From a virus, in IMG/VR virus record IMGVR_UViG_3300037246_000359, positions 1 to 42,582 of that record: 42,582 bases of DNA. One strand, 5' to 3'. Positions 578 to 38,496 of the stretch are shown here, piece after piece (the stretch's first letter is position 1; each line of letters opens with the position of its first letter). The position numbers and the translations under genes are program-made. The notes under the pieces were generated by a model. That model worked only from the letters and a program-made list of their open reading frames with translations, searched no databases and had not been told where the DNA came from.

Positions 578-1524
578 TCAAGTATAGTGCAGGCGCAACT
601 CTTGACTGGTTCCACCGATCCCTCGGGGTCAATAACCAGCCTCACGAGGATGAAGTTCAAACTAACTGTCCCATGTGTGGGAGCAAGAAGCTCTACTTCA
701 ACGTGCGGAAGGGTGTGGGCGTATGCCATAGCGCATCCTGTGAGTGGCATGAGAAAGTGTTTCTCAAGGATCTCATCGAGCTAGTTGGGTTCGCTCCCGA
801 TCAAGGCGGTGAGTGGGAGGCCCCTGAGGTACGCGGTGAGGTACGACCCGAGAAACTACCGGGCAGGCCGCTGCTGTGGAATACGTTCGCTGGGCCGATG
901 ACCTACCACATAGAGGGGCTGAACTACCTGCGAAGCCGGGGTATTACCTGTGATGAGGAGAGAATCTATGTTCCGATTCGAGACGTTAGCGGTGTTTTGG
1001 TTAATTACAATAGCCGTGTTCTTCCTGGCTTTGAATACTTTGACGCTACACCAAAGTATCTCTACTACCCCGGAGCAAAGACCGGCAATTATATCCTTGG
1101 ATGGCAAGAGTCCCGCGACTGGGAAGATCTTGCTCTGGTTGAAAACACCTTCGTCTCCCTTGCTTATCGAAATCGAATGCACTGTTCAACCACATTCGGA
1201 TCGAACATTTCTAATGTGCAAGCAGACCTCATCGCCGAATCAGGAATCCGACGAGTCTCAATTCTCTGGGATGAGAACGCTGAGATGGGAGCTGACCGAG
1301 CACTCAAGAAGCTGACCGAGCGTGGCGTCAAGTGTGCCTACTGGTGCATCCTCGGCCAGCCTGATGACTACCCTACTGACTGGGTAGCTGAGAAGCTGGA
1401 AGAGGTGAAGATGGTCGCGGACGATGGAGACTACTACCTTGACCTGAGGAGTGAGTGCCAGACTATGCGCGATTGCTGTGAACTGAAGAATGATATTGCC
1501 AAGAACCCGCCGGAAACGGTATAA
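574..1524 (+). CDS. DNA primase (DnaG-like, zinc finger plus TOPRIM)
   Basis: This 316-residue protein makes RNA primers for lagging-strand synthesis. The N-terminus has a CHC2-type zinc-binding element: CPMC near residue 30, then a beta hairpin and GVCHSASC near residue 50. The second half has TOPRIM-like features: a glutamate strand (ALVENTF, in place of the usual VEG.fD) and a later acidic strand (VSILWDENAEMGADRA, like the LDxDxAG block). No RecA-type helicase domain follows, so it is a stand-alone primase. The ATG at 574 is chosen over an in-frame start 54 nt upstream because a GGAG lies at 565-568 and the upstream part overlaps mini-protein copy 4. The usual VEG glycine is changed to Asn, a divergence worth noting. 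Confidence 0.75.
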   Translation: MIKYSAGATLDWFHRSLGVNNQPHEDEVQTNCPMCGSKKLYFNVRKGVGVCHSASCEWHEKVFLKDLIELVGFAPDQGGEWEAPEVRGEVRPEKLPGRPLLWNTFAGPMTYHIEGLNYLRSRGITCDEERIYVPIRDVSGVLVNYNSRVLPGFEYFDATPKYLYYPGAKTGNYILGWQESRDWEDLALVENTFVSLAYRNRMHCSTTFGSNISNVQADLIAESGIRRVSILWDENAEMGADRALKKLTERGVKCAYWCILGQPDDYPTDWVAEKLEEVKMVADDGDYYLDLRSECQTMRDCCELKNDIAKNPPETV

Positions 1525-1535
1525 TTAGGAAGAGG
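1516..1535 (+). promoter_or_regulatory. Phage promoter motif, copy A
   Basis: The sequence ACGGTATAATTAGGAAGAGG lies just upstream of the gene at 1547 and is identical to the copy at 19991. It contains TATAAT (1520-1525). A TTGCCA at 1496-1501, 18 nt upstream, matches the sigma70 -35 consensus at 5 of 6 positions. Conservation continues past the -10 into TAGGAAGAGG, which also resembles the start region of T7-type promoters. It may serve host RNA polymerase or a phage polymerase. Confidence 0.7.
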
Positions 1536-6430: not shown

Positions 6431-6451
6431 CTGGCGCGAACATTGGAGGAA

Positions 6452-6471
6452 ATGGTATAATTAGGAAGAGG
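6452..6471 (+). promoter_or_regulatory. Phage promoter motif, copy B
   Basis: The sequence ATGGTATAATTAGGAAGAGG differs from copies A and C at one position (T for C). TATAAT is at 6456-6461. The -35 region is poor (TGGCGC, 3 of 6, at 18 nt spacing), so the conserved block itself probably carries the recognition. It is followed by a 55-nt leader to the ATG of the ssDNA-binding protein gene, so the GGAAGAGG part cannot be a ribosome-binding site here. Confidence 0.68.
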
Positions 6472-6526: not shown

Positions 6527-7540
6527 ATGCAGTTCTACGAACGAAATGAAGCGTCTATCACTAGCGAGAGTGACGCACTCGACAAGAAGGCTCAGGAATG
6601 GGGCAACGATGCGCCCATGCTGTACCTCTTCGCTGGATCCACTATGGTCCGTATTCTCCCCCCGTACAACGAGACTGGCGTGTTCTTCCGTCAGGTCGTG
6701 AAGCATCGCGTCCGTGTGGGTAACCGCACGGAGATCCTCGCCTGCCCGGCGGCTGAGGCCAACCTACCCTGCGCTATCTGTGAAAAGGGCCAGGAGCTGA
6801 TGGACAGCAGGGACGAGATGAAGATGAAGTTCGCTCGTGAGAACCTTCGTCCCCGCACCCAGTATCTCTACAACGTGATCGTCCATTCGGGTCCTGCCAA
6901 CAAGAAGGGCGAGACTCCCGAGTTTGGCAAAGTGTACGTTCTTGAGGCTGGCGTCATGGTTCACCGTCAGGTGATCTCCCTTGATCAAGACCCCGGCGCT
7001 GGCTGGGCAGACATCACGAACCCGGCTGCGGGCGTGAACCTGATCATCAAGCGGACGGGCCAGGGGCTCGACACCAAGTACGAAGTGAACCCGCACGGCG
7101 CAGGCCGCACGGACTTCTTCGCTGACTGTACTGCCCATGGAGTCGATCCGAACAGCCTTGAGCTGATCAATTTGGACGAGGTGTACTCCCTTCCGCCCGC
7201 TGAGAAGCTGGCTGAAGTAGCCTCGACCATCAACGTCGGCGGTGCCTTCCCGGGCGCTGGTACGGCCCAGACCGCGCATCCTGCGCTTCCGACCGCGAGC
7301 GCTGCTCCGGCCCCGGTTGCGCCGGTCGCTGCGGTCGCTCCTGTCGCCCCGGTTGCTCCGGTTGCGGCTGTTGCTCCGGTGGCACCCGTGTCTGCCCCCG
7401 TGGCTGTTACTCCCCCGGTCGCTGCGCCCGTGGCACCTGTAGCCGTTGCCCCAGTGGCTCCGGTTGCGGTCCCGGTTGCCGCCCCTGAGGCACCGGCTGT
7501 ACCGCAGCCGCCTGCGGTGCCCGAGCCCCCGAAGGAGTAA
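6527..7540 (+). CDS. ssDNA-binding protein, T4 gp32-like core
   Basis: This 337-residue protein probably coats ssDNA during replication and recombination. The core (residues 1-225) follows the phage gp32-like pattern: RILPPYNETGVFFRQVVKH near 43, a Cys cluster (ACPAAEANLPCAICEK, with an upstream His available) typical of a zinc site, then NVIVHSG and a DITNPAAGVNL...TGQGLDTKYEV block in the second half. Residues from about 258 to the end are a Pro/Ala/Val low-complexity tail ending in PEPPKE, which is only weakly acidic compared with usual SSB tails. It has its own promoter (6452) and is followed by a terminator (7545), consistent with high expression of one gene. RBS is AAAGGAT before 6527. 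Confidence 0.75.
   Translation: MQFYERNEASITSESDALDKKAQEWGNDAPMLYLFAGSTMVRILPPYNETGVFFRQVVKHRVRVGNRTEILACPAAEANLPCAICEKGQELMDSRDEMKMKFARENLRPRTQYLYNVIVHSGPANKKGETPEFGKVYVLEAGVMVHRQVISLDQDPGAGWADITNPAAGVNLIIKRTGQGLDTKYEVNPHGAGRTDFFADCTAHGVDPNSLELINLDEVYSLPPAEKLAEVASTINVGGAFPGAGTAQTAHPALPTASAAPAPVAPVAAVAPVAPVAPVAAVAPVAPVSAPVAVTPPVAAPVAPVAVAPVAPVAVPVAAPEAPAVPQPPAVPEPPKE
7301..7531 (+). repeat. Imperfect tandem coding repeat (Pro-Val-Ala units) in the ssDNA-binding protein tail
   Basis: This stretch encodes about 75 residues made almost only of Val, Ala and Pro, in repeats of the type APVAPVAAV. At DNA level it is a run of imperfect GTTGC(T/G)CCGGT-like units, GC-rich and prone to slippage. The tail is probably extended and disordered. 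Length variation between related phages is expected. Confidence 0.7.
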
Positions 7541-7544
7541 CCCT

Positions 7545-7590
7545 GAGCCCCCGGTGGTAGCCCAAACTACTGCCGGGGGCTCCTTTCTTC
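7545..7590 (+). terminator. Intrinsic terminator after the ssDNA-binding protein gene
   Basis: The arms 7545-7560 and 7567-7582 pair over 10 GC-rich base pairs, two mismatches, then 4 more pairs, around a 6-nt loop. CTTTCTTCCCC follows. The stem is strong but the T-tract is broken by C, so termination may be partial, which would allow some read-through into the recombinase gene at 7611. Confidence 0.65.
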
Positions 7591-19058: not shown

Positions 19059-19832
19059 ATGATCAGCGATTATCCCGGCAGCGGTCGAGAAGCTCTTCTC
19101 GAATCACAGATACAGGCCCTTCAGGTTGAGGTGTCCCTGCGGACGAAGGCCCCTAAGAAGGTCGAAGTCTTCAACAAGGGCTATGTCGAACTGTATGATT
19201 GGATGGGAGACGACCTTCGGATCGTCAACATGGCCCGTCAGTCGTTCGGCCAGGAGTCAACTGAGATGGGAGACTACGAGACTGGACTCGTCAACTTCCT
19301 CATGCGAGAGCGACATGGTACACCGTTCGAGGGACCTGTCTTCACATTCAACGTCAAATGCCCTATTTTCGTAGCTAGGGAGTGGTTTCGGCATCGGATT
19401 GGCTCGTTTAACGAGTATTCCGGGCGATATTCAGAAATGACGGCTGACGTGTATATCCCCGATGCGCCGCAGATTCGTACCCAGGTCGGTAAGCCGGGCA
19501 ACTATACATTCGAGACTATGGATTGTGAGCAGGCCAACGGTATCCGTCAGGATATGCAGGTTGTCGCTCGTGAGTGCTGGGACCTCTACCAGCATCTACT
19601 GAACCGGGGTGTTGCCAAGGAGGTCGCCCGTATGGTCCTGGGCGTGAACCAGTACACTCAGTTTACTTGGGTTGTCAACTTCAGGGCTCTGCTCAACTTC
19701 ATCTCCCTCCGTAGCGACGATAACGCCATGTGGGAGATCCGCCAGTACAGCCAGGAGATCGAGAAGCTCATCAAGCCTATCGTTCCCGTGGCCTACGAGA
19801 GCTTCGTTACCCATGGGAGGGTCTGTCCGTGA
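19059..19832 (+). CDS. thyX: Flavin-dependent thymidylate synthase
   Basis: This 257-residue enzyme methylates dUMP to dTMP using methylene-tetrahydrofolate and FAD/NADPH. The diagnostic motif RHRIGSFNEYS (RHRX7S) spans 111-121. FLMRERHGTPFE near 80-91 and the late VNFRALLNFISLR block are also family-typical. It takes the product of the dCMP deaminase at 5432. The first 38 residues are a non-conserved extension. GGGAGGAAG (19047-19055) supports the start. The stop overlaps the GTG of the next small gene. Confidence 0.93.
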   Translation: MISDYPGSGREALLESQIQALQVEVSLRTKAPKKVEVFNKGYVELYDWMGDDLRIVNMARQSFGQESTEMGDYETGLVNFLMRERHGTPFEGPVFTFNVKCPIFVAREWFRHRIGSFNEYSGRYSEMTADVYIPDAPQIRTQVGKPGNYTFETMDCEQANGIRQDMQVVARECWDLYQHLLNRGVAKEVARMVLGVNQYTQFTWVVNFRALLNFISLRSDDNAMWEIRQYSQEIEKLIKPIVPVAYESFVTHGRVCP

Positions 19833-19966
19833 GCATCCTTGTATACAAGATCATCATTGGGTCCATCATAGGCGTCATGATCGTGGGCGGCGTGATCGCT
19901 GTCGGGCTGGGCATCTACGGTATGTGGGTTGGACCGCCTAATGGCATCGGGCCGGGTAGACCGTAA
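19829..19966 (+). CDS. Very small single-pass membrane protein (45 aa)
   Basis: This 45-residue frame starts at a GTG that overlaps the thyX stop (GTGA), with GGGAGG at 19815-19820, an ideal distance upstream. Residues 3-32 are almost entirely hydrophobic and Gly/Ile/Val-rich (KIIIGSIIGVMIVGGVIAV), followed by a short Gly/Pro tail. It is the last gene of this transcription unit before promoter C. The function is unknown. Confidence 0.5.
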   Translation: MSILVYKIIIGSIIGVMIVGGVIAVGLGIYGMWVGPPNGIGPGRP

Positions 19967-19990
19967 AACATTTCCATGGACTCTCCCGAA

Positions 19991-20010
19991 ACGGTATAAT
20001 TAGGAAGAGG
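19991..20010 (+). promoter_or_regulatory. Phage promoter motif, copy C
   Basis: ACGGTATAATTAGGAAGAGG is identical over all 20 bases to copy A at 1516. TATAAT is at 19995-20000, and TTTCCA at 19971-19976 (4 of 6 to the -35 consensus) sits 18 nt upstream. It lies in an intergenic gap and serves the single gene at 20051, which is followed by a terminator. Confidence 0.72.
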
Positions 20011-20050
20011 ACAAGAAGTTCTCTACACACTTTCGACAGGGAGACTCACA

Positions 20051-20497
20051 ATGAACAAGTTCTACACTACGCTGCTCGTCAGTGCAGTCGCGGTGGCCTT
20101 CTCGGGCATTGCGATTGCTGACGGCGACTGCCAGGGTAACTGCCCCAGCGGTCCTACCGAATCCACCACCAACAACACCAGCGAGTCCAACTCGGGTAAC
20201 AACACCTTTGTCGTGAGCGGTGATCAGCGCGATGAGTTCCCGGCTTCTTCGGCTCCGAACCTCATTCTCGGTACCTGTCAGGCTGGCCTCACGGCTCAGA
20301 GCCAGATGGGCGGCGGCTCGATGGGTGGACCGGACGAAGTTTGTCTGCTCTTTACTCTCAGCCAGATCCAGTTGGCTATGGGCGATCGTGAAGCTGCTTA
20401 CCGTAGCCTTGACCTCGCCGAGACGACTCTGAAGTGGCGTGCGAACCCGGTTCGTCGTTTCTTCCAGGCGATCCCCCTCCTCGGGCGGATCTTCTAG
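20051..20497 (+). CDS. Exported protein of unknown function in a promoter-terminator cassette
   Basis: This 148-residue protein begins with a clear Sec signal peptide (MNKFYTTLLVSAVAVAFSG, cleavage probable after AIA near residue 23). The mature start carries CQGNC, followed by a Thr/Asn/Ser-rich linker (about 35-52). The C-terminal 60 residues are helical, with a TPR-like stretch (LAMGDREAAYRSLDLAE), and end in a cationic, hydrophobic segment (RRFFQAIPLLGRIF). Two further Cys at about 76 and 97 could form disulfides. It has its own promoter (19991), GGGAGA upstream, and a terminator 5 nt after its stop. Export plus independent strong transcription suits superinfection exclusion or envelope remodelling, but no motif proves it. 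Confidence 0.65.
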   Translation: MNKFYTTLLVSAVAVAFSGIAIADGDCQGNCPSGPTESTTNNTSESNSGNNTFVVSGDQRDEFPASSAPNLILGTCQAGLTAQSQMGGGSMGGPDEVCLLFTLSQIQLAMGDREAAYRSLDLAETTLKWRANPVRRFFQAIPLLGRIF

Positions 20498-20501
20498 TAT
20501 A

Positions 20502-20532
20502 GGGGGGCGGTGGAGGCCGTCCCCCCTTCTTT
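20502..20532 (+). terminator. Intrinsic terminator after the exported protein gene
   Basis: The arms 20502-20510 and 20517-20525 pair over 9 bp (eight G-C, one G-T wobble) around a 6-nt loop, followed by CTTCTTTCT. It lies 5 nt after the stop codon at 20497 and before the ribosome-binding site of the next gene. The T-tract is interrupted by C, as in the terminator at 7545. Confidence 0.65.
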
Positions 20533-21144: not shown

Positions 21145-24100
21145 ATGCCCTTTGATCGAGACGGAATCTGGACGCTACCCTCCGAAGAGAATAATGCCGA
21201 CTTTCAGCGGCAGCTCCTCAGTAAGCGAGAAGAGATCGCCCCTACCTCAGAGATGATCGAGGCCATCGCGGCCAATCAGCCCTTGGAAGCTGCCCCTGTC
21301 CGCGCCGACAACTTTGACGCCATCAGCCGGATGCAGGGTGAAGTGGACATTGTGATCCCCGTCTACGGCGGGCTCCACGTCCTAAAGCCCTGTGTCGAGA
21401 GTATCATCAAGCACACCCAGTGGGACTACAATCTGATCTTCGTAGACGACGCCTCCACCGATCCCGAGATCTCCGTTTACCTAGATGAACTAGGTGGACG
21501 GGTCACTAGCGGGTTCAAGCACCTCACCAACAAGCGGAACCGTGGGTTCGCCCCCACCGTTAACCGTGGCGTGGCGGCTGGTTCGGCTCGCTACATCTGC
21601 ATCCTCAACTCCGATACCCTCGTCACCCCGGGCTGGCTAACCCGCCAGCTTGTGGCTATGGAGAGCGACCCCAAGAACGTGATCGTGAACCCGGCTACGA
21701 ACAACACCGCCCTGGTGAATGTGGCTATGTACCCCGGGGCCTCCTACAAGGACATGGCTAACGCTGTGTCTGTCTCATCTAACGCTACCACCTACAACGA
21801 GATCATGCCCACGGGCTTCTGTTTCATGGTGCGCCGCAAGACCTGGGACGCCGTTGGCCCGTTGGATGAGGCGTATGTCTCCTACGGAGAGGAGACGGAC
21901 TTCTGGTTCAAGGCTATCAAGCAAAAGGACGCGGACGGCGTAATCATGAACAATAAGGCGGTCATCGCCGACAATGCCTACGTCTTCCACGAGCGTGGAG
22001 CCAGCTTCTCACAGCTTGACGTTGCGGAGCACATGGGCCTCCGGCGTAGCGGGAGCGAGCGATTCAACAAACTACACCCCGACTTCCGCGAGTGGGTGAA
22101 GGGACATGACTCTGGTGGGTCTGTGGCTCACCTTCGTAACGATCTGCCTCGTGAGGCTTTCAAGCGGGACTACAAGGGCAACATTGCCTTCGTGGTCAAG
22201 TCAGCCGCACCGTGTGGCGGGATGATCTTTATCGCCGACATCGTTAACCAGTTGATTGAAGACGGTTACAACGCCAAGGTCTGCGTGGTGCTGGAATCCT
22301 TCGATGAGGAGAACCCGCCCCCGATGCCGGTGGTTGGTAACCTGCGAACGGCACCCGTCCTGTTCAAGAGCCACGAGGAGTTCTCTACCAACTTCGGGGG
22401 TAGGGTCTTCATGACTGGGACCGTCTTCGCGGCTGTGACCGAGATGACCCCGGTCGTCTGGAGCCTAGATCAGCGCCTGAAGGGCATCCAGGGCTGCAAC
22501 TTTGTCCAGTCCTACGATGTGGCCCTCGCTGAGAGCGTGGGTCGCAAGGATTTGACGGACGCTATCAACGAGTCCTACAGCCGGCTCCCCAATATCGTGG
22601 CCTCTAATTGGGTGGCCGACCAGCTTCGTGACGACGGCCACGATGTCCAGACGGTCGTCACTCCGGGCATCAACTTCGATCTCTACCACCCACGGGATCG
22701 AGAGCTTGGAGATGAGCGGTTCACGGTGGCGGTACTCTACAACGAGCACTACCAGTTCAAGGGGAAGAACTGGGCGGAAGAGTTCATTTCGGCGCTGGAT
22801 CCCGCTAAGAACCCCAACCTGCGGGTACTGGTTATTGGGCCTCAGACGATCGAGCAGAGGGGCGTGACGTGCCTTGGGAGCCTCTCTCCCGCACGTATGG
22901 CTGACCTCCTGGGCACTGAGGTGGATGTACTGGTAGACCCCGCTGAGATCCACTCCTACGGCCTCCCCGCTCTGGAGGCTCTCGCCTCTGGCTGCCGGGT
23001 GGTCTGTCGAAACAACAAGGGCATCCACGAGTACGAAGACTTCTGGCACGGTCGAGTGCATGTACTTGAGGACCCCCAGGATGCGGCTGATGCTGTCGAA
23101 ACCCTGTCCTACATGGAATGCTCTCGGGAGCCCCTCATCGGGAACGCCATCAATCGGAAGCTCCAGATCGCCAAGCTCATCGACTTTGTTTATCCTCCCA
23201 AGACACTCGGTCGGCGGATAGAGGTGATTACTCCCCACATGCGTAAGCACGGTGGGCCTACCACCATCGCCGCCACGGCTCAGCAGATTAAGCTCCTGGG
23301 CCACGATACGAACATGGCGATGATCTACACAGACTGGAACCCTGAGGTCATGACGGCTGCTAGGGGTCTGAAGATGCGTGCTGGGGACCTTGTTATCCCT
23401 GAGTATGTGGAGCTGGCGATAATCAATTCCGACAACCCCTTCGCCGAGAAGCTCATGGAGTCGAACACGACTGCTAAGTACGTCATGCTGAAGCTGAGTC
23501 ACAATGCCCGCTTCCTCGCCGTCGAGGCGGGGAACCTGAATCTGCCCTGGGACCACATCATGACGAGCACGTCCTGGCTCAAGGAAGCCTGCATGACCCA
23601 GCAGGAAGGGTGGGAGCACACGGAGTGGGCCGACAATCAGGTCACGGTAGCGGGCTGGTACCACTACGGGCACGATCTGTTCGCCATGACGCCCTCCAAC
23701 CGGACGTATGGGAATTCCAAGGTAGGCTTCACCCTCGGAACGCTGGTACACCCTCACCCGCTCAAGGGTTCGCCGCAGGCTATGAACGTAATCGACGGGT
23801 TGAAGCGGAAGCACAAGGAGAAGTTCCAGGCGGTAGGTTTCGGGGAATCGAGGGTTGGCTTGCCGGAGCACATGCAGTATTGCCGGAGCCTCAGTAGGTC
23901 AGATATGGCTCACGCCTTCAAGCAGCTAGACGTATGGCTTGGTGCTAGCCACTCTGAGGGTCTGGGGCGTATGTCCCTGGAGGCCATGAGTGCAGGCTGC
24001 GCGGTGGTTACCACGGACACCGGGGCTGAGTTCCTGAAGAACGGTGAGAACTGCCTCCTCTACCCGGTCGGGAAGGCCCAGAAGGGAGCCGAGTGTGTGG

Positions 24101-24231
24101 ATAGGTTGGTGCAGGACCCGGACCTGTTCACCAAGATAGTGACTAACGGGTTTGCCACGGCCCAGGCATCAGCAGATCCGACTGTATACCGGAAGAACCT
24201 CAACACCGTGATCAAGAAGGTGCTGTCATGA
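21145..24231 (+). CDS. Three-domain glycosyltransferase (GT2-like, then two GT-B/GT4-like)
   Basis: This 1028-residue protein strings together three glycosyltransferase-like domains. Domain 1 (about 65-310) is GT2/GT-A: VDIVIPVYGG, FVDDASTD, and ILNSDT as the metal-binding DxD-like site. Domain 2 (about 340-690) is GT-B: GINFDLYHP, then EIHSYGLPALEALASGC, the donor-binding E-x7-E block. Domain 3 (about 690-1028) is a second GT-B: ITPHMRKHGGP at its start and SEGLGRMSLEAMSAGCAVV as the donor-binding block. Such a protein could build a short branched or multi-sugar chain. The acceptor might be a phage protein, host surface glycan or modified DNA base; nothing in the window decides. It is the longest enzyme in the window. 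Confidence 0.75.
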   Translation: MPFDRDGIWTLPSEENNADFQRQLLSKREEIAPTSEMIEAIAANQPLEAAPVRADNFDAISRMQGEVDIVIPVYGGLHVLKPCVESIIKHTQWDYNLIFVDDASTDPEISVYLDELGGRVTSGFKHLTNKRNRGFAPTVNRGVAAGSARYICILNSDTLVTPGWLTRQLVAMESDPKNVIVNPATNNTALVNVAMYPGASYKDMANAVSVSSNATTYNEIMPTGFCFMVRRKTWDAVGPLDEAYVSYGEETDFWFKAIKQKDADGVIMNNKAVIADNAYVFHERGASFSQLDVAEHMGLRRSGSERFNKLHPDFREWVKGHDSGGSVAHLRNDLPREAFKRDYKGNIAFVVKSAAPCGGMIFIADIVNQLIEDGYNAKVCVVLESFDEENPPPMPVVGNLRTAPVLFKSHEEFSTNFGGRVFMTGTVFAAVTEMTPVVWSLDQRLKGIQGCNFVQSYDVALAESVGRKDLTDAINESYSRLPNIVASNWVADQLRDDGHDVQTVVTPGINFDLYHPRDRELGDERFTVAVLYNEHYQFKGKNWAEEFISALDPAKNPNLRVLVIGPQTIEQRGVTCLGSLSPARMADLLGTEVDVLVDPAEIHSYGLPALEALASGCRVVCRNNKGIHEYEDFWHGRVHVLEDPQDAADAVETLSYMECSREPLIGNAINRKLQIAKLIDFVYPPKTLGRRIEVITPHMRKHGGPTTIAATAQQIKLLGHDTNMAMIYTDWNPEVMTAARGLKMRAGDLVIPEYVELAIINSDNPFAEKLMESNTTAKYVMLKLSHNARFLAVEAGNLNLPWDHIMTSTSWLKEACMTQQEGWEHTEWADNQVTVAGWYHYGHDLFAMTPSNRTYGNSKVGFTLGTLVHPHPLKGSPQAMNVIDGLKRKHKEKFQAVGFGESRVGLPEHMQYCRSLSRSDMAHAFKQLDVWLGASHSEGLGRMSLEAMSAGCAVVTTDTGAEFLKNGENCLLYPVGKAQKGAECVDRLVQDPDLFTKIVTNGFATAQASADPTVYRKNLNTVIKKVLS

Positions 24232-25197: not shown

Positions 25198-25610
25198 TGA
25201 CTGACTGGGAAAAGCCTGTGTGGTGGCGTAGCGTCAAGAACTACAAGTATCAGACCACCGAAGATATGTCGATCACCCTGGAGCATGACTTCGAGGCCGA
25301 GGGTGCGGACAATTTCGTCGGGATCGCGGGCGGTAAGCTGTTCATCGAGAAGGGCTATGCCTGGGACGGGGCCAGTGGGCCGACCTGGGACGACAAGAGC
25401 ACGATGATGGCGAGCCTCGTTCACGATGCTCTCTACCAGTTGCTCCGTGCTGGGATCATCCACAAGAGCCGGCGTCTGGACGCTGATGACGAGCTTGTGC
25501 GTATTGCCATTGAGGACGGTATGTGGAAGTGGCGTGCCAAGATGTGGCGACGTGGCCTTAAATGGTTCGGTGCAAAATCCGCTCGTCGGATTCGGAAGGA
25601 GGAAGGATAA
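25197..25610 (+). CDS. DUF1353-like phage protein
   Basis: This 137-residue protein has the conserved core of the DUF1353 family: an N-terminal beta region ending in IEKGYAWDGASGPTWD near residues 50-65, then SLVHDALYQLLRAG with His76/Asp77 near 73-86, and a helical DADDELVRIAIEDGM segment. The family occurs widely in phages and has no established function. The His-Asp pair might bind metal. It lies amid small membrane proteins, a neighbourhood where lysis or envelope roles are worth testing. The last 25 residues are strongly basic. Confidence 0.65.
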   Translation: MTDWEKPVWWRSVKNYKYQTTEDMSITLEHDFEAEGADNFVGIAGGKLFIEKGYAWDGASGPTWDDKSTMMASLVHDALYQLLRAGIIHKSRRLDADDELVRIAIEDGMWKWRAKMWRRGLKWFGAKSARRIRKEEG

Positions 25611-25867
25611 TGAAACTGCATCACCTTTACTACCTGTTCGCAGCAATCTCTGTGGGTGTCGCCCTGGCGTGTGCCCCGACTGAGGAAGACTACGCTAGAC
25701 AGCAGGAGCTGAAGAAGGAGTACCTCTGGGGGTTGGCTGGCACTCAGTCTAATGGGACGCCCGGCCCCTGGACCTATGCTTCGCAGCACAAGATCGACAT
25801 GGCTGATGGCACCCAAGTGGTTTGTGTCAGCACCCACAACGCGCTGTGGTGCAAGGAAGCACAGTGA
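25610..25867 (+). CDS. Small exported protein, possible lipoprotein
   Basis: This 85-residue protein starts at an ATG in a TAATG junction, with AAGGAGGAAGG upstream. The first 22 residues are a signal sequence (KLHHLYYLFAAISVGVALAC). The cysteine sits where a lipobox Cys would be (ALAC, although the -3 position is Ala rather than Leu). The mature part is polar with two further Cys. An outer-membrane lipoprotein in a small membrane-protein cluster could be a spanin-type subunit, but it lacks the Pro-rich character of Rz1. The assignment is tentative. Confidence 0.5.
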   Translation: MKLHHLYYLFAAISVGVALACAPTEEDYARQQELKKEYLWGLAGTQSNGTPGPWTYASQHKIDMADGTQVVCVSTHNALWCKEAQ

Positions 25868-38438: not shown

Positions 38439-38458
38439 TCCCTTCCTAATTATACCGT
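38439..38458 (-). promoter_or_regulatory. Phage promoter motif, copy D (minus strand)
   Basis: Read on the minus strand the sequence is ACGGTATAATTAGGAAGGGA, matching copies A and C over the first 17 bases. TATAAT lies at 38454-38449. No good -35 is present at 16-18 nt; the upstream DNA is AT-rich. It lies in the only intergenic gap of the minus-strand operon and directs transcription of the GNAT-like gene and everything to 29292. The GGAAGGGAGG part doubles as the first gene's ribosome-binding site. Confidence 0.7.
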
Positions 38459-38496
38459 TTGTTCTAATGATTCAGCAGTTTAATCAAACTAATCAA

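What the first reader, a model, noticed from the sequence alone, without database searches (positions are those of the whole stretch)
19971..20532. Self-contained promoter / exported protein / terminator cassette
A single 148-residue exported protein has its own strong promoter copy and a hairpin terminator 5 nt after its stop, unlike the surrounding polycistronic genes. This is the shape of a moron or an early envelope-acting effector. A secreted protein with CQGNC and a cationic hydrophobic end, transcribed independently, suggests superinfection exclusion, receptor masking or inhibition of host envelope defence.
Basis: partly seen in the sequence, partly recalled or inferred. Interest (0 to 1): 0.72.

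Follow-up and report, generated by a model that had tools for sequence, protein, structure and literature searches.

The report
Highly expressed exported phage protein cassette
An uncultured phage makes an exported protein from its own promoter and RNA hairpin, the format it also uses for its DNA-binding protein and a relative uses for its capsid; the protein family is new, conserved in three relatives, and probably acts in large amounts on the host cell envelope.

Summary
A 148-residue protein with a signal peptide (window 20051-20497) is bracketed by a copy of the phage's repeated promoter and a GC hairpin 4 nt after its stop. The reading as an early moron holds only in part. The promoter is the phage's general one (4 copies in the window, 10 in an 87-kb relative). 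The promoter-gene-hairpin format is shared with the single-strand DNA-binding protein (SSB) in the window and with the major capsid protein and one further gene in the relative, so it looks like a bulk-expression format. The gene sits at the same place in the three phages of one clade, whatever thymidylate synthase lies upstream. It is absent from that place in the sister phage, which keeps a promoter there. The 87-residue C-terminal domain is 66-70% identical to its orthologues, with four cysteines per protein, a TPR-like helical hairpin and a cationic amphipathic tail ending RRFFQAIPLxGR[IM]F. No Pfam, PHROG, named-phage or bacterial-genome relative was found. Best reading: an abundant, disulfide-bonded envelope effector, most likely superinfection exclusion or a related block; a lysis-timing or cell-wall regulator is the main rival. 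Export and mechanism are inferred, not shown.

The parts
19971..19976 (+). -35-like hexamer TTTCCA, 18 nt before the -10. In the 87-kb relative, GC is invariant 16-15 nt upstream of the core in 10 of 10 copies; here TC, GC in the other three window copies
19989..20010 (+). phage promoter repeat core AAACGGTATAATTAGGAAGAGG (-10 TATAAT at 19995-20000)
20038..20043 (+). ribosome-binding site AGGGAG
   Evidence: sequence
20051..20497 (+). 148-aa exported protein
   Evidence: orthologues L005:6007-6516 and L016:8001-8429
20051..20119 (+). predicted signal peptide MNKFYTTLLVSAVAVAFSGIAIA, signal peptidase I type (AIA before DGD), no lipobox
   Evidence: sequence; h-region mean hydropathy 2.3-2.6 in all three orthologues; no dedicated predictor available
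20120..20233 (+). variable Ser/Asn/Gly-rich linker with a Cys pair (CQGNC, residues 27 and 31)
20234..20494 (+). conserved C-terminal domain, residues 62-148, 70% and 66% identical to orthologues; invariant C76 and C98
20336..20431 (+). TPR-like helix-turn-helix (EVCLLFTLSQIQLAMGDREAAYRSLDLAETTL)
   Evidence: weak
20441..20494 (+). cationic amphipathic C-terminal tail ANPVRRFFQAIPLLGRIF
   Evidence: hydrophobic moment 0.42; 1% of shuffles reach it
20502..20525 (+). GC hairpin after the stop, terminator-like, tail CTTCTTTC
6450..6471 (+). promoter repeat upstream of the SSB gene
6527..7540 (+). single-strand DNA-binding protein gene (phrog_1192; Pfam gp32), the comparison cassette
7545..7582 (+). 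strong hairpin after the SSB gene, same format
1514..1535 (+). promoter repeat copy
38439..38460 (-). promoter repeat copy upstream of a gene in the tail and virion operon

Best explanation
The locus is a bulk-expression cassette. The phage's general promoter, probably read by host RNA polymerase with phage-adapted specificity, transcribes one gene up to a GC hairpin. The gene product is exported by Sec and signal peptidase I and is held by two disulfides. A flexible linker leads to a small helical TPR-like domain with a cationic amphipathic tail. In large amounts in the envelope, that domain and tail bind a host inner-membrane or periplasmic component and block it, most likely so that a second phage cannot infect. 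Shown in sequence: promoter repeat, hairpin, conservation, cysteines, domain and tail pattern. Inferred: export, abundance, the disulfides, the binding target and the exclusion function.
For: The signal peptide differs in sequence but keeps its form in all three orthologues, each with exactly four Cys. The format is shared with SSB in the window and with the major capsid protein and one further gene in relative G001 (capsid identity by PHROG in a scan of L018:8778-9989). The C-terminal domain is under purifying selection, dN/dS about 0.1-0.2 with dS near saturation. Its identity is at or above the typical backbone protein. The gene is retained across the whole three-phage clade but missing at that locus in the sister phage, as expected of a useful but dispensable host-interaction function. 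Small periplasmic phage proteins that jam a receptor are known: T5 Llp on FhuA (PMC9586334).
Against: No sequence or confident structural match to any exclusion protein. The domain is more conserved than expected of a protein that tracks a variable receptor. The promoter class is not specifically early. It has no lipobox, unlike T5 Llp. The host is unknown, so even a Gram-negative envelope is assumed.
Confidence: 0.35

Rival explanations
1. Lysis-timing regulator: a periplasmic protein that tunes holin, endolysin or spanin action, as in lysis inhibition.
For: Secreted, with a cationic amphipathic membrane-seeking tail conserved to the last residue. Phage proteins that fine-tune lysis exist (BSPM4 ORF52, PMC11657625; N4 and T4 lysis inhibition, PMC12642591).
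Against: It lies among nucleotide-metabolism genes, not next to a recognisable lysis module. No spanin or holin features (no lipobox, no transmembrane helix after the signal). Lysis genes of this phage were not identified.
Confidence: 0.2
2. Cell-wall or envelope-machinery modulator: a TPR-like periplasmic protein that activates or inhibits a peptidoglycan synthase or similar host complex, working like LpoP.
For: Weak TPR signals (Pfam TPR_2 E=0.034 in one of three members). Profile match to both TPRs of the peptidoglycan synthase activator LpoP, whole-sequence E=0.018 but no stretch significant alone. Same layout of flexible tether plus C-terminal TPR domain (PMC7267771).
Against: TPR-class similarity is common by chance; the best profile match is a designed repeat protein. 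Only one TPR-like hairpin, no lipobox, structure model of low confidence.
Confidence: 0.15
3. Anti-defence or stress-protection factor in the envelope, for example against an envelope-sensing abortive defence.
For: Secreted, abundant, clade-limited.
Against: Nothing specific points to it; no Pfam or PHROG family was matched at all, and the defence library was not searched.
Confidence: 0.12
4. Virion-associated or cytoplasmic protein whose N-terminus only resembles a signal peptide.
For: The cassette format is shared with the capsid gene and another gene in the virion region of G001.
Against: AxA cleavage motif, h-region and exactly four cysteines recur in all three orthologues despite little identity there. 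The gene is outside the virion operon and missing at the locus in the sister phage.
Confidence: 0.08

Closest known systems
Phage T5 Llp (superinfection-exclusion lipoprotein, PMC9586334)
   Same: Small phage-encoded protein acting in the periplasm; one proposed function
   Different: Llp is an outer-membrane lipoprotein binding FhuA; this protein has no lipobox and no detected sequence relation
LpoP peptidoglycan synthase activator (PMC7267771)
   Same: Exported; flexible tether followed by a small TPR-type C-terminal domain; weak profile match to both LpoP repeats
   Different: LpoP is a host lipoprotein with tandem TPRs; here one hairpin, two cysteine pairs, cationic tail, soluble export
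Lysis-inhibition regulators (N4, T4; BSPM4 ORF52)
   Same: Phage proteins that adjust lysis at or in the envelope
   Different: No sequence relation found; different genomic neighbourhood
The SSB cassette of the same phage (6450-7582)
   Same: Same promoter repeat, single gene, hairpin right after the stop
   Different: SSB is a cytoplasmic replication protein

Membership tests
Moron (independently transcribed accessory insert) | own promoter and terminator around one gene | tested here: met
Moron (independently transcribed accessory insert) | sporadic presence among close relatives | tested here: inconclusive
   present in all 3 members of a clade at one locus, absent at that locus in the sister phage; contigs may be incomplete
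Moron (independently transcribed accessory insert) | composition differing from the phage | tested here: not met
   GC3 0.71 against 0.69 +/- 0.05 for 29 other genes
Llp-type superinfection-exclusion lipoprotein | lipobox cysteine | tested here: not met
   AIA-DGD, AFA-SKD and AFA-GHN cleavage sites, no [LVI][AS][GA]C
Llp-type superinfection-exclusion lipoprotein | binds and closes an outer-membrane receptor | not testable with these tools
   needs experiment
TPR protein | Pfam TPR score above the gathering cut-off | tested here: not met
   best TPR_2 E=0.034 in one of three members; no Pfam hit for the window member
TPR protein | helical hairpin of TPR type | tested here: inconclusive
   AlphaFold2 domain model helices 33-48 and 52-69, pLDDT about 70-81 there but 64 overall; Foldseek E>0.5
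LpoP-type synthase activator | outer-membrane lipoprotein with tandem TPR | tested here: not met
   no lipobox, one hairpin
Spanin | lipobox (outer) or N-terminal transmembrane anchor (inner) | tested here: not met
   signal peptidase I motif, no later hydrophobic segment (read from the sequence)
Known phage protein family | match in PHROGs or Pfam | tested here: not met
   best phrog_806 E=0.24

The most novel reading that the evidence does not exclude
A new class of phage envelope effector: soluble, disulfide-bonded and TPR-like, made at the level of SSB or capsid protein, and flooding the periplasm to reprogram a host envelope machine (such as a peptidoglycan synthase) or to close the cell to other phages.
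Probability: 0.15. Interest if true: 0.65.

Novelty: new member of a known kind. Interest (0 to 1): 0.4.

Why it matters
If the shared format marks bulk products, the layout by itself points to which unknown phage genes are made in quantity. Here it singles out an exported protein, of no known family, in a lineage without an identified cultured relative. It is a small, testable candidate for how such phages act on the envelope.

Tried and rejected
Foldseek on two AlphaFold2 models gave no match better than E about 0.45 in BFVD or 1.4 in the PDB: the models are too weak. Search by the conserved C-terminal motif found only chance ORFs besides the two known orthologues. Two bacterial-genome scans found no relative. 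tblastn in named phages found none, apart from one E=2 hit in a tail protein. Phage single-subunit RNA polymerase as reader of the promoter: no match in G000 or G001 (where the control did not ring either) and none among the large G001 proteins scanned. The clear -35-like GC with 18-nt spacing in G001 fits a sigma-type promoter better. I recalled a wider class of exported phage proteins with a similar Cys...Cys-helix layout but had no test for it, so it is left as a lead only.

Full report
What is there. The window is a 42.6-kb virus record, probably a fragment of a tailed phage. Its 24-kb middle part has no nucleotide match among 50,697 named phage records. At 20051-20497 lies a 148-codon ORF with a ribosome-binding site, preceded by a promoter repeat and followed, 4 nt after the stop, by a 10-bp GC hairpin. 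The neighbours are ThyX upstream and a thymidylate-kinase-like AAA protein and a 1028-aa glycosyltransferase downstream.

The promoter is real and general. The core AAACGGTATAATTAGGAAGAGG occurs four times in the window, with small variations. A search with a 21-mer of it gives 0 matches in 100 shuffles. In the 87-kb relative G001 the version ACGGYATTATTTACTAG occurs ten times, invariant except for Y, with an additional invariant GC 16-15 nt upstream of the core, which together give a -35/-10-like layout with an 18-nt spacer. In G002 it is ACGGTATTATTA (2 copies), in the sister phage G003 AAAAGGCATAGTT (5 copies). So the motif is uniform within a genome and drifts between genomes. The genes behind it correspond between the window and G001: a small gene after the primase-like gene, SSB, the exported protein, and a gene in the tail operon. 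In G001 it also precedes the operon ending in the major capsid gene. Such a promoter is not specific for early genes.

The cassette format marks a few genes. Among 48 window genes only two have a 3' hairpin of -20 kcal/mol or better: SSB (-33.2) and the exported protein (-21.9); both lie directly behind a promoter copy. In G001 the strongest 3' hairpins follow the major capsid protein (-27.5) and an unassigned gene in the virion region directly behind a promoter copy (-24.7), and the exported protein is fourth (-19.8; the third, -20.1, overlaps the start of the next gene). SSB of G001 also has a hairpin about 36 nt past its stop (sequence printed). This suggests that the format is used for proteins needed in quantity; that is an inference from two proteins that are usually abundant, SSB and capsid.

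The orthologues. Only two were found in the viral-contig scans (also by the neighbouring gene): L005/L015 in G001 and L016 in G002, both from metagenome 3300037246. Both lie between a thymidylate synthase gene (in G001 with one small gene between) and the kinase-like gene, and both have the promoter copy and a hairpin of different sequence at the same place. The upstream synthase is not conserved: ThyX in the window and G002, a distant ThyX in G001 (28% identity), and in G003 a different thymidylate synthase that reads as ThyA (the ThyA name is from the sequence, not a family search). In the glycosyltransferase tree the three phages form a supported clade (98/93) with G003 as sister. G003 keeps a promoter copy and a strong hairpin after its thymidylate synthase, with no exported ORF between them. 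Either the gene was gained by the ancestor of the three or lost in G003. Thirteen more distant contigs that were searched lack it too, but records may be incomplete.

The protein. All three orthologues have a short n-region, a hydrophobic h-region (mean hydropathy 2.3-2.6) and AxA before the mature part; none has a lipobox. No signal-peptide predictor was on hand, so export is a strong inference. Each has exactly four cysteines: a near pair in the mature N-terminal part and two in the conserved domain. The linker varies in length and sequence. The last 87 residues are 70% and 66% identical to the orthologues, at or above most backbone proteins, with dN/dS about 0.1-0.2, dS being near saturation. 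The stretch QMGGGS[ML]GGPDEVCLLFTL and the tail VRRFFQAIPLxGR[IM]F are nearly invariant. The tail is amphipathic and carries charge +3. The helical hairpin between them has a TPR-like pattern: the Pfam families weakly matched at domain level are all TPRs (best E=0.034, one member), and a profile of the domain aligns with both TPRs of LpoP. None of this reaches significance for membership.

Mechanism. A secreted, probably abundant, dispensable but well-conserved protein outside the virion operon is best read as an envelope effector. I give superinfection exclusion the largest share (0.35) because it is a well-known role for small exported phage proteins (own knowledge, and T5 Llp in PMC9586334) and fits abundance and dispensability. 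Lysis timing (0.20) and action on a cell-wall machine (0.15) are serious rivals; the high conservation of the domain is more natural for a conserved host target than for a variable receptor. No step beyond sequence anatomy is shown.

Novelty. The protein belongs to no family in Pfam or PHROGs and is a new family, but secreted phage accessory proteins are a known kind. The useful new point is the bulk-cassette format. Interest is moderate.

Noticed in passing
window 1514, 6450, 19989 (+), 38460 (-); G001 ten copies: A bipartite promoter family, uniform within each genome but drifting between related phages, at corresponding genes; no phage RNA polymerase was found, so a phage-specific sigma-like factor is possible.
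   Followed up: partly
L024:6315-6390 (G003): Orphan promoter plus strong hairpin (-35.6 kcal/mol) after a thymidylate synthase gene with no ORF between them, at the locus of the exported gene; an empty cassette or a small RNA.
   Followed up: partly
window 19059-19832; L005:4993-5691; L024:5486-6292: Thymidylate synthase swaps at one locus: two distant ThyX types and a ThyA-like gene in related phages.
   Followed up: partly
window 21145-24231: 1028-aa multidomain glycosyltransferase found in 46 IMG/VR contigs, a good marker of this lineage.
   Followed up: partly
window 25610-25867: Small protein with a lipobox-like ALAC after a hydrophobic N-terminus (phrog_3641, E=1.7e-4, unknown function): a second exported candidate.
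   Followed up: no
window 19829-19966: 45-aa ORF with one hydrophobic segment just upstream of the cassette, not seen in the relatives at that place.
   Followed up: no
L018:15141-15524 (G001): 127-aa protein of no PHROG family in the same promoter-gene-hairpin format, in the virion gene region.
   Followed up: partly
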